Virus record (IMG/VR): IMGVR_UViG_3300046782_000096
Location: 1 to 63,557 of that record
From: a virus
DNA length: 63,557 bases
Direction: 5' to 3' (one strand)
A program made the translations under genes and the position numbers. Below, in pieces: positions 50,440 to 53,169 of this stretch (position 1 is its first letter; the number at the start of each line of letters is the position of its first letter). The notes under the pieces are model-generated. The model made no database searches. It was not told the origin of the DNA and was given only the letters and a program-made list of their open reading frames with translations.

Positions 50440-51186
50440 ATGCGGAGAAGTTTTAAAAGATCAAACGTTGTCCCGCAATGGGCAAGAGAAATAACAGACG
50501 CAGAAGCGGGAAGCGATGTTAAAATAATCTGGTACTCCTATAAAAATGGATACCGTGGACATGGGAAAGGTAGTCCTTGGGACAAAAGAATTACGTGTCA
50601 CGCAGATGATGATAGAACAAGAGCTAGTGTGTGTTTAGTTTTACATGAGATTACCCATGTAATAACTCCGATTGACGCAGTTAGGAATAGAGAAAGATGG
50701 GCATGGCATGGTCCAGAGTTTATTAAAAGAGTAATTAAACTGTACGAGAAGTATGGTGTATTAGAATATGCTTCTAAATGGGAACACTACGCGCGAATCC
50801 GTAGCGCAATAAAGAGGTATTTACTTATGAACAAATACAAAAATGCAGGTGGTGACAGTAATACGTATGTCCAAGTCAAATGCCCGGTATGTGGCTATAA
50901 GGATATCACACAAGATAAAGCTAACTGGACTTGCTCAGAGTGTGCAGATAAAAAAGAGATGAAAGCGAGGATAATTACAGGTGCAAAAGCAATACAAGAA
51001 AGTCCAGTTACTTCAGTAGCTTTAAAGAAAGCTTTGGACACATTAATAGAACCAGTAAAAGAAACAGGTTTACTAGCTGAGTATTACCGGATGACTGGAC
51101 GCAAGCCAGAAGAACCGGCAAAGGTAATAAAAGAGTATACAGTGAATGGACTCCAGTGTAAGATAGTGAGTACCAAGAGGAATTAA
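50440..51186 (+). CDS. SprT-like zinc metallopeptidase with zinc ribbon
   Basis: 248 aa. HEITH (H69, E70, H73) followed by WHGPEF with H90 gives the three-His zinc site and HGPEF-type motif of SprT/minigluzincin proteins. CPVCGY...WTCSEC (C148, C151, C165, C168) is a zinc ribbon, as in SprT. Cellular relatives include Spartan, which digests DNA-protein crosslinks. A phage copy could clear proteins from DNA or cleave a host factor (inference). ATG at 50440 with GGAGAG upstream; own promoter at 50381. Confidence 0.8.
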   Translation: MRRSFKRSNVVPQWAREITDAEAGSDVKIIWYSYKNGYRGHGKGSPWDKRITCHADDDRTRASVCLVLHEITHVITPIDAVRNRERWAWHGPEFIKRVIKLYEKYGVLEYASKWEHYARIRSAIKRYLLMNKYKNAGGDSNTYVQVKCPVCGYKDITQDKANWTCSECADKKEMKARIITGAKAIQESPVTSVALKKALDTLIEPVKETGLLAEYYRMTGRKPEEPAKVIKEYTVNGLQCKIVSTKRN

Positions 51187-51199
51187 GAGGAGAGGTAGA

Positions 51200-51450: not shown

Positions 51451-51597
51451 ATGGCAATCAGAAACAGGCGTCGCGGATACATTGTCAGTACCAGAGCAAA
51501 AGACGACAGTGCGAAACCGAACAGAAAGCGGCACATGGGAAATAAACACAGAAAGAAAGCAAGAAACAAAGTTAAAATGAGAAGTCATAGACATTAA
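51451..51597 (+). CDS. Very basic 48-aa protein
   Basis: 48 aa, nearly half Arg, Lys or His (AIRNRRRGY, NRKRHMGNKHRKKARNKVK), ending HRH. Ribosome site GAGGAG. Composition resembles small ribosomal or nucleoid proteins; expected to bind RNA or DNA. It lies just upstream of an RNA-like hairpin element. Confidence 0.6.
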   Translation: MAIRNRRRGYIVSTRAKDDSAKPNRKRHMGNKHRKKARNKVKMRSHRH

Positions 51598-51603
51598 TAG
51601 ACA

Positions 51604-51663
51604 GCGCGGCAGGAATGAAAGCTAACTGTTTTTGCCCCAGTTAGTGAGTAGTTCTTGCTGCGC
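51604..51663 (+). ncRNA. Long intercistronic hairpin
   Basis: GCGCGGCAGGAA (51604-51615) pairs over 12 bp (two G-T) with TTCTTGCTGCGC (51652-51663). Inside, CTAACTG (51622-51628) pairs perfectly with CAGTTAG (51638-51644). There is no T-run, so it is not a terminator. It ends 20 bp before the next ATG, so an RNA processing, stability or translational control role is plausible. Confidence 0.6.
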
Positions 51664-51683
51664 CGTCATGGCTAGGAGGATTT

Positions 51684-52051: not shown

Positions 52052-52080
52052 TTGACAACCGGAAAAGATAGGCGTAGAGT
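52052..52080 (+). promoter_or_regulatory. Sigma-70-type promoter
   Basis: TTGACA (52052-52057), 17-bp spacer, TAGAGT (52075-52080). The next gene starts 61 bp downstream after a short leader with AAAGGAAAG. Confidence 0.65.
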
Positions 52081-52140: not shown

Positions 52141-52548
52141 ATGGAATTTCAGATTTTCTCAAAGGTACCAGCACCCCCGCAGAAGCGTGGTCCCGGCTTT
52201 GGTGTACGTGAAAGCAAGTACCCGTTCGATAAGCTGGACGTAGACGACGTACTGGTGATCCCCGGTACGACCAGCAAGAATTTTGGTCCTACTGTTCGCG
52301 CAGCGGAGCAACGTCTAAAGGGTTTTTACTTTACTGTCCGCACCGGTCCAGTAATGGTCAAGGGTGAAGACGGTTCCGATATCGAAGTGGTCCCGGCTGG
52401 TGCCGTTGGCGTATGGCGCATTGCCGTGAAGGCTCCGCGTAAGCCGCAGAAGGCGCGCAGTGCCGAGGATAAGGCCGCTGCGACGGCGAAGGCGAAGGCG
52501 ACACGGGAAGCGAATAAGGCCGCTAAGCTGGCTGCGAAAGCCGGGTAA
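52141..52548 (+). CDS. Putative DNA-binding protein with Ala/Lys tail
   Basis: 135 aa. N-terminal domain (FGVRESKYPFDKLDVDDVLVIPG...TVRAAEQRLKGFYFTVRT....VWRI) matches a small phage/plasmid family with a SKYPF core. The C-terminal 40 residues are Ala/Lys repeats (AAATAKAKATREANKAAK) as in histone H1-like tails. GC-rich codons throughout. Has its own promoter and is followed by a structured RNA region. Confidence 0.65.
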   Translation: MEFQIFSKVPAPPQKRGPGFGVRESKYPFDKLDVDDVLVIPGTTSKNFGPTVRAAEQRLKGFYFTVRTGPVMVKGEDGSDIEVVPAGAVGVWRIAVKAPRKPQKARSAEDKAAATAKAKATREANKAAKLAAKAG

Positions 52549-52579
52549 TAGATTTAAAACAAGGATGGTACTAGACTAC

Positions 52580-52745
52580 AGGGATGGGCAAACTAAGTTA
52601 TGAATAGAGGAAAGTAGAATAGCAAGACGTGACGAAACGCCTTGTGAGTGGAGACTAAAATTAGCCTCTCATTCTACAAAAAACGGGGCAAATCAGGACA
52701 CCCTTGCGAGGGAGCTAAGTCCGCCGCACGCTGTAAGCGGCCCGG
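52580..52745 (+). ncRNA. Candidate structured RNA with multiple hairpins
   Basis: GTAGAAT (52614-52620) and ATTCTAC (52671-52677) close a three-way junction. It contains hairpin CAAG-a-CGT/ACG-c-CTTG (52623-52644) and hairpin GGAG-a-CTA/TAG-c-CTCT (52650-52669). Then GGAC-CCCT-TGCG-AGGG-GTCC (52696-52722) and GCCGC/GCGGC (52723-52727 and 52737-52741) form two more stems. No ORF spans it. The density of perfect, nested, non-overlapping helices is far above neighbouring intergenic DNA. It could be a riboregulator or stable RNA; I cannot match a known class. Confidence 0.6.
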
Positions 52746-52778
52746 TAGTGGAAGTAATTCATTAGGAGATAAAACCCT

Positions 52779-52931
52779 ATGAAGACTGAAATTGAAATTG
52801 CTATTAGAGCATTGCTAGTTAAGATGACCGCAAGTGTAACAACGGAAGAGGCTTTAAAGTTTACACAATCAATGTTAAATTTAGCTCATACAGCCGTTAC
52901 ATTAGCTGCGCTAAAGGACAAGCAAGAGTAA
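52779..52931 (+). CDS. Small helical protein
   Basis: 50 aa, AGGAGAT ribosome site, all helical (EIEIAIRALLVKM, EEALKFTQSMLNLAHTAV). Follows the structured RNA, so its translation may be controlled by it. No family recognised. Confidence 0.6.
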   Translation: MKTEIEIAIRALLVKMTASVTTEEALKFTQSMLNLAHTAVTLAALKDKQE

Positions 52932-52968
52932 GGAGTTTTTACTACCAAAACACCGGCAAAAAAAGGGC

Positions 52969-52997
52969 TTGACAAGGCTTCCCGGTAGGCGTATACA
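52969..52997 (+). promoter_or_regulatory. Near-consensus sigma-70 promoter
   Basis: TTGACA (52969-52974), exactly 17 bp, TATACA (52992-52997): the strongest promoter match seen. No ORF follows for 172 bp, but a terminator does, so it probably drives a small RNA and by read-through the next small gene. Confidence 0.82.
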
Positions 52998-53003
52998 GGC
53001 GGA

Positions 53004-53108
53004 TTCCCCGGCTCAGGATCACTCTCCGATTAAGGCCGTCGAGCGCTCCGTCTCCCCTGCGCTCCGGTCTGTGCAAGTCAAAGCACAACCCTTAGCCGGG
53101 TTTTTTTT
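53004..53108 (+). ncRNA. Candidate small RNA
   Basis: Between the promoter at 52969 and a run of eight Ts at 53101-53108. CCCGGCT (53007-53013) pairs with AGCCGGG (53094-53100) immediately before the T-run, closing the whole transcript as a terminator-like stem. A local hairpin GTGC..GCAC (about 53071-53085) lies inside. No start codon with a ribosome site. About 105 nt, typical for a phage or bacterial sRNA. Confidence 0.6.
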
Positions 53109-53169
53109 ACTAAGTTTCTAAACTAGACTCACCTAACATAATCCTAGACAACCAAAAGAGAGAAATAAA

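What the first reader, a model, noticed from the sequence alone, without database searches (positions are those of the whole stretch)
52580..52745. Densely folded non-coding region with a three-way junction and two further hairpins
Five perfect or near-perfect nested helices lie in about 130 nt without an ORF: 52614/52671, 52623/52641, 52650/52666, 52696/52719 with an inner CCCT/AGGG, and 52723/52737. They do not compete with each other. The element sits between a putative DNA-binding protein with its own promoter and a 50-aa gene. I cannot match it to a named RNA class, so it may be an undescribed phage RNA.
Basis: seen in the sequence. Interest (0 to 1): 0.78.

Follow-up and report, generated by a model that had tools for sequence, protein, structure and literature searches.

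The report
Structured RNA between phage genes
Between two small genes of an unclassified 63.6-kb phage lies about 180 bases that fold into a three-armed junction plus hairpins, part of that fold preserved by matched mutations in the one close relative; it matches no catalogued RNA, and phages with a related-looking gene often carry unlike but equally folded RNA at the same spot.

Summary
The structure is real. All five helices exist, but two arms of the junction (and a possible 8-pair helix 52560-52567/52699-52706) each hold one A.C mismatch on the + strand. Over 146 nt the fold is modestly better than shuffled (z -1.46 on +, -2.94 on -); the junction alone is better (z -2.97/-4.53). The only sequence relative, IMG/VR 3300046683_000059, keeps the element, and hairpin 52723-52741 changes from GCCGC/GCGGC to ACCGG/CCGGT around an unchanged loop (chance about 5e-4). 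There the element continues into a 142-nt domain closed by a roughly 20-bp stem (z -5.3); the window has 16 nt instead. No Rfam match. The upstream gene shares an RESKYPFDK motif with phrog_15747 of rhizobial T7-like phages, whose copies are also followed at once by folded RNA (z to -7.5, strong covariation), with different sequences. Best reading: an undescribed, modular intercistronic RNA element of the early mRNA, probably a processing or stabilising structure, shortened in the window. Strand, processing and function are not shown. In passing: a likely free-standing small RNA gene (53003-53112) and a UUAAUGAC three-way-junction motif in other phages, which the window does not match.

The parts
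52052..52080 (+). promoter-like site TTGACA-N17-TAGAGT in front of the 135-aa gene
   Evidence: consensus scan, 10 of 12; identical in the relative L002
52141..52548 (+). 135-aa gene with RESKYPFDK motif; weak DUF7303 / phrog_15747 resemblance
52560..52567 (.). 5' arm of a possible 8-pair long-range helix with 52699-52706 (A.C on +, G.U on -)
   Evidence: RNAalifold of the - strand alignment
52568..52601 (+). possible weak 5' hairpin (52568-52572/52596-52601, bulge 52598) around an invariant 23-nt loop; one double and one single compatible change in L002
   Evidence: read by eye from the alignment; not in the predicted folds
52614..52677 (.). three-way junction: P1 52614-52620/52671-52677, P2 52623-52630/52637-52644, P3 52650-52657/52662-52669
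   Evidence: z -2.97 on +, -4.53 on -; invariant in L002
52696..52722 (.). hairpin IV: 52696-52699/52719-52722 with inner 52701-52704/52709-52712
52723..52741 (.). hairpin V: GCCGC-ACGCTGTAA-GCGGC; ACCGG-ACGCTGTAA-CCGGT in L002
   Evidence: two double compensatory changes
52741..52756 (.). place where the relative L002 (4107-4248) has a 142-nt domain closed by a stem of about 20 bp; the window has 16 nt
52779..52931 (+). 50-aa gene that follows, with AGGAG ribosome site
   Evidence: no family match at E 0.01

Best explanation
The stretch about 52560-52757 is an intercistronic structured RNA element of a + strand early phage mRNA. It is transcribed together with the 135-aa RESKYPFDK gene from the promoter at 52052, folds into a three-way junction followed by hairpins, and ends just before the ribosome site of the 50-aa gene. 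It most likely acts in cis: it separates the two cistrons, protects the 3' end of the upstream message, and in its full form (142-nt domain on a roughly 20-bp stem in the relative L002) offers a double-stranded stem for cleavage by a host nuclease such as RNase III, as T7 intercistronic stems do. It is modular: the stem-closed domain is present in L002 and missing from the window, and in rhizobial T7-like phages the content of the corresponding stem is exchanged. Shown: the fold signal, two double compensatory changes, the presence/absence of the module, the position, the parallel in other phages. Inferred: + strand, co-transcription, RNase III, function in cis.
For: Junction z -2.97/-4.53 and L002 extra domain z -5.29/-6.22. 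Two double compensatory changes in hairpin V with an unchanged loop, chance about 5e-4. Lies between co-directional genes behind a sigma-70-like promoter, with no minus-strand promoter found nearby. In phages with a phrog_15747 gene the gap right after that gene is strongly folded, and is the most structured tested gap of the genome in 3 of 4, with covariation and G.U pairs on the coding strand. T7 R1.1 and the sufficiency of a 12-bp stem for RNase III: PMC8708148.
Against: Energy in the window favours the - strand. The window itself has lost, or never had, the long stem that would be the nuclease target; its longest helix is 7-8 bp. Only one homologue, and the junction does not vary. The gene link to phrog_15747 rests on a 23-residue motif. 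No expression data.
Confidence: 0.42

Rival explanations
1. A trans-acting stable phage RNA: the region is cut out of the message and kept as a small RNA (for example a decoy for a host nuclease or regulator), its content changing rapidly in an arms race.
For: Content of the corresponding stems is swapped between close relatives (RHEph02 against I38) and lost in the window against L002. One such gap holds a tRNA (NMeng1, Rfam 43.6 bits). A pseudoknot is conserved within one content type.
Against: No own promoter or terminator in the window. No evidence of a discrete RNA. Swapping also fits recombination in a tolerant spacer.
Confidence: 0.2
2. An antisense RNA from the - strand, acting on the message of the 135-aa or 50-aa gene.
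For: Better folding on - (z -2.94 against -1.46; junction -4.53 against -2.97). A.C mismatches of P2, P3 and the long-range helix on + become G.U on -. A weak terminator-like site on - at 52703-52686.
Against: No - strand promoter found near. P2 and P3 outer pairs G52622.U52645 and G52650.U52669 favour +. In the parallel elements of other phages the + strand is the RNA.
Confidence: 0.12
3. A DNA-level element, such as a replication start or recombination site that works as folded single-stranded DNA.
For: Module gain or loss exactly next to the hairpins; window and relative are mosaic.
Against: No GC-skew switch here. G.U-compatible changes on one strand in the parallels point to RNA.
Confidence: 0.08
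4. No function of the fold: chance pairing in a spacer.
For: Whole-region z on + only -1.46; a scan of 49-57 kb gives several windows as good; hairpins IV and V z about 0.
Against: Junction alone z -2.97/-4.53; double compensation p about 5e-4; folded RNA in the matching place of other phages.
Confidence: 0.14

Closest known systems
T7 intercistronic RNase III sites (R1.1 and others)
   Same: Folded RNA between cistrons of a phage early message; in the L002 and rhizobial forms a long imperfect stem
   Different: T7 R1.1 is one 49-nt stem (PMC8708148); here a three-way junction and several hairpins, and the window lacks the long stem; cleavage untested
Gaps after phrog_15747 genes in Cuernavacavirus, Atuphduovirus, Palo, L143, L003
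   Same: Right after a gene with the SKYPF motif, strongly folded, modular, ending before the next ribosome site
   Different: No shared RNA sequence or junction motif with the window; protein homology limited to a 23-residue motif
Intervening sequences of 23S rRNA (100-200 nt stems excised by RNase III)
   Same: Variable content closed by a long stem
   Different: Sit in rRNA, not phage mRNA (PMC8708148); comparison by analogy only
GOLLD, ROOL, raiA and other large ornate RNAs
   Same: Structured RNAs, some of them phage-encoded (general knowledge)
   Different: Mostly much larger; no Rfam match to any such model

Membership tests
Any Rfam 15 family | covariance-model score at or above the gathering score | tested here: not met
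UUAAUGAC three-way-junction motif (L003, Palo, L143, L220) | three helices joined by UUAAUGA and C, found by model R1 | tested here: not met
   no meaningful match in the window, filters off
phrog_15747 gene plus folded gap | upstream gene a member of phrog_15747 | tested here: inconclusive
   E 0.041 over 22 residues; hhalign 91% over 23 residues
phrog_15747 gene plus folded gap | strongly folded gap directly behind the gene | tested here: met
   L002 extra domain z -5.3, window junction z -2.97 on +; the whole 230-nt window gap is weaker (z -0.59 on +, -2.06 on -)
RNase III processing site | double-stranded stem of 12 bp or more | tested here: inconclusive
   stem of about 20 bp in L002, only 7-8 bp helices in the window
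RNase III processing site | cleavage in vivo, lost in an rnc mutant | not testable with these tools
   needs RNA from infected cells
Free-standing small RNA gene | own promoter and terminator | tested here: not met
   none bounding the element on +; only a weak minus-strand terminator-like site 52703-52686
tRNA / tmRNA | ARAGORN or Rfam tRNA match | tested here: not met

The most novel reading that the evidence does not exclude
The window element belongs to an undescribed class of phage RNA loci: a SKYPF-motif (DUF7303-like) protein gene followed by a modular folded RNA whose stem-closed content is swapped between phages, working as a protein-RNA pair or as a trans-acting decoy against host defence.
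Probability: 0.17. Interest if true: 0.78.

Novelty: new variant of a known kind. Interest (0 to 1): 0.5.

Why it matters
Non-coding RNAs of environmental phages are hardly catalogued. If the pattern holds, one conserved protein motif marks a place in unrelated phages where structured RNA modules are kept and exchanged; infection RNA-seq in Rhizobium or Agrobacterium phages, which can be grown in the laboratory, would show directly whether these are processing signals or stable RNAs.

Tried and rejected
Group I intron, RNase P, tRNA, HDV-like and other ribozymes considered from sequence impressions: no Rfam support. DNA patterns GTAGAATAGCAAGACG and GGGGCAAATCAGGAC in 2.9 million viral contigs: apart from the known relative, only chance hits. 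DNA polymerase relatives (L005 and others): no shared early region and no element. Protein scans for the 135-aa and 50-aa genes: only the one relative plus L003; genome contigs: none. Paso's gap looks tRNA-like to the eye (T-arm), but ARAGORN finds no tRNA, so not claimed. The alignments behind searches use arms chosen by hand with artificial spacers, so their counts support those structures but are not blind; the further copies found by model R1 (L003 623-683; L220 4357-4420, fetched by a pattern containing the junction letters) were not used to build it.

Full report
What is there. The window is a 63,557-base virus record. Long ORFs at 42-63.5 and 0-7 kb run mostly on the + strand, the block at 7.6-41.5 kb on the - strand. 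Between a 135-aa gene (52141-52548) and a 50-aa gene (52779-52931) lie 230 non-coding bases. Over 52600-52745 the + strand folds at -40.1 kcal/mol (z -1.46) and the - strand at -44.9 (z -2.94). The junction alone (52612-52679) has z -2.97 and -4.53; hairpins IV and V together are at chance level.

Homology. There is one sequence relative, IMGVR_UViG_3300046683_000059 (L002/L004, record G001), about 97% identical here but mosaic overall. It keeps the element. Its differences are informative: in hairpin V (52723-52741) all four substitutions fall on the stem and all pairs stay intact (G-C to A-U, C-G to G-C), the 9-nt loop ACGCTGTAA being unchanged. For four random substitutions in 19 nt the chance of at least two double changes with all pairs kept is 5e-4. 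The outer of the two pairs sits at the edge of the alignable sequence, a caution. The junction is identical in both, so covariation is silent on it. A weak 5' hairpin (52568-52601) also shows one double and one single compatible change around an invariant 23-nt loop, but it was read by eye and is not in the predicted folds.

Modularity. Straight after hairpin V the relative has 142 nt where the window has 16 (52741-52756). Those 142 nt form a domain closed by a stem of about 20 bp, ending just before the shared ribosome site, z -5.29 on + and -6.22 on -. The window therefore holds a shortened version, or the relative an extended one.

Parallels elsewhere. The 135-aa protein shares the motif P..R...FG.RESKYPFDK with a protein in L003 and, through it, with phrog_15747; full-length homology is not established. 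phrog_15747 genes of Rhizobium, Agrobacterium, Nostoc and Stappia Autographiviridae are followed at once by a non-coding gap that is mostly strongly folded. In Atu_ph03, RHph_I38 and Alfirin this is the most structured tested gap of the genome (z+ -4.3, -7.4, -5.7); in X3_9 it is among the top three. In Cuernavacavirus and Palo the gap holds a 26-bp stem, 11 pairs of which show double changes; the stem encloses different contents. A loop-to-strand pseudoknot (UUGCCG/CGGCAA) is kept through a C-G to A-U change in Alfirin. L003, Palo and L143 have a three-way junction with invariant UUAAUGA and C joints and nine double changes in 16 pairs; a model built from them finds further copies right behind stop codons of other genes (L003 623-683, L220 4357-4420). 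The window is not a member of that motif.

Strand. In the parallel elements the coding strand is the RNA: G.U cells clearly outnumber A.C cells in the 26-bp stem and energies are lower on + in most. In the window the signals conflict: better energy on -, three A.C against two or three G.U in the shared helices on +. Gene direction and the promoter favour +.

Mechanism. The best reading is an intercistronic mRNA element that separates and protects cistrons, with a nuclease-cleavable stem in its full form. In T7, R1.1 is such a stem, and a single set of recognition boxes in a 12-bp stem suffices for RNase III; 100-200-nt stem inserts in 23S rRNA are excised by the same enzyme (PMC8708148). Everything beyond fold, conservation, position and modularity is inference.

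Verdict. Observation confirmed; interpretation partly supported; a new, small, orphan structured RNA with an interesting wider pattern around it.

Noticed in passing
window 52968-53112, + strand: Likely free-standing small RNA gene: TTGACA-N17-TATACA promoter, then about 105 nt folding into a closed multi-arm structure (z -5.40) whose end pairs with its start and runs into eight U; RNA part identical in L002, no Rfam match, no other copy found in viral contigs.
   Followed up: partly
window 51600-51668, + strand: Second intercistronic structure: long stem with an inner hairpin (z -4.39), unchanged in the relative; another candidate processing site.
   Followed up: partly
L003 4317-4374 and 623-683; L134 (Rhizobium phage Palo) 1211-1273; L143 1459-1521; L220 4357-4420: Undescribed three-way-junction RNA motif with invariant UUAAUGA and C joints, covarying helices, placed behind stop codons in several phages.
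   Followed up: partly
L127 3472-3706, L130, L131, L134, L121 (gaps after phrog_15747 genes): 26-bp covarying stem enclosing exchangeable content; one content type has a conserved loop-strand pseudoknot UUGCCG/CGGCAA, compensated in Alfirin.
   Followed up: partly
window 51186-51188 and 51590-51593: The relative L002 carries extra small genes exactly here (about 160 and 270 nt), so this early region gains and loses small modules.
   Followed up: no
L005 1890-2150: Structured-looking non-coding stretch beside tRNA-like genes in a distant DNA-polymerase relative, seen while reading; not folded.
   Followed up: no
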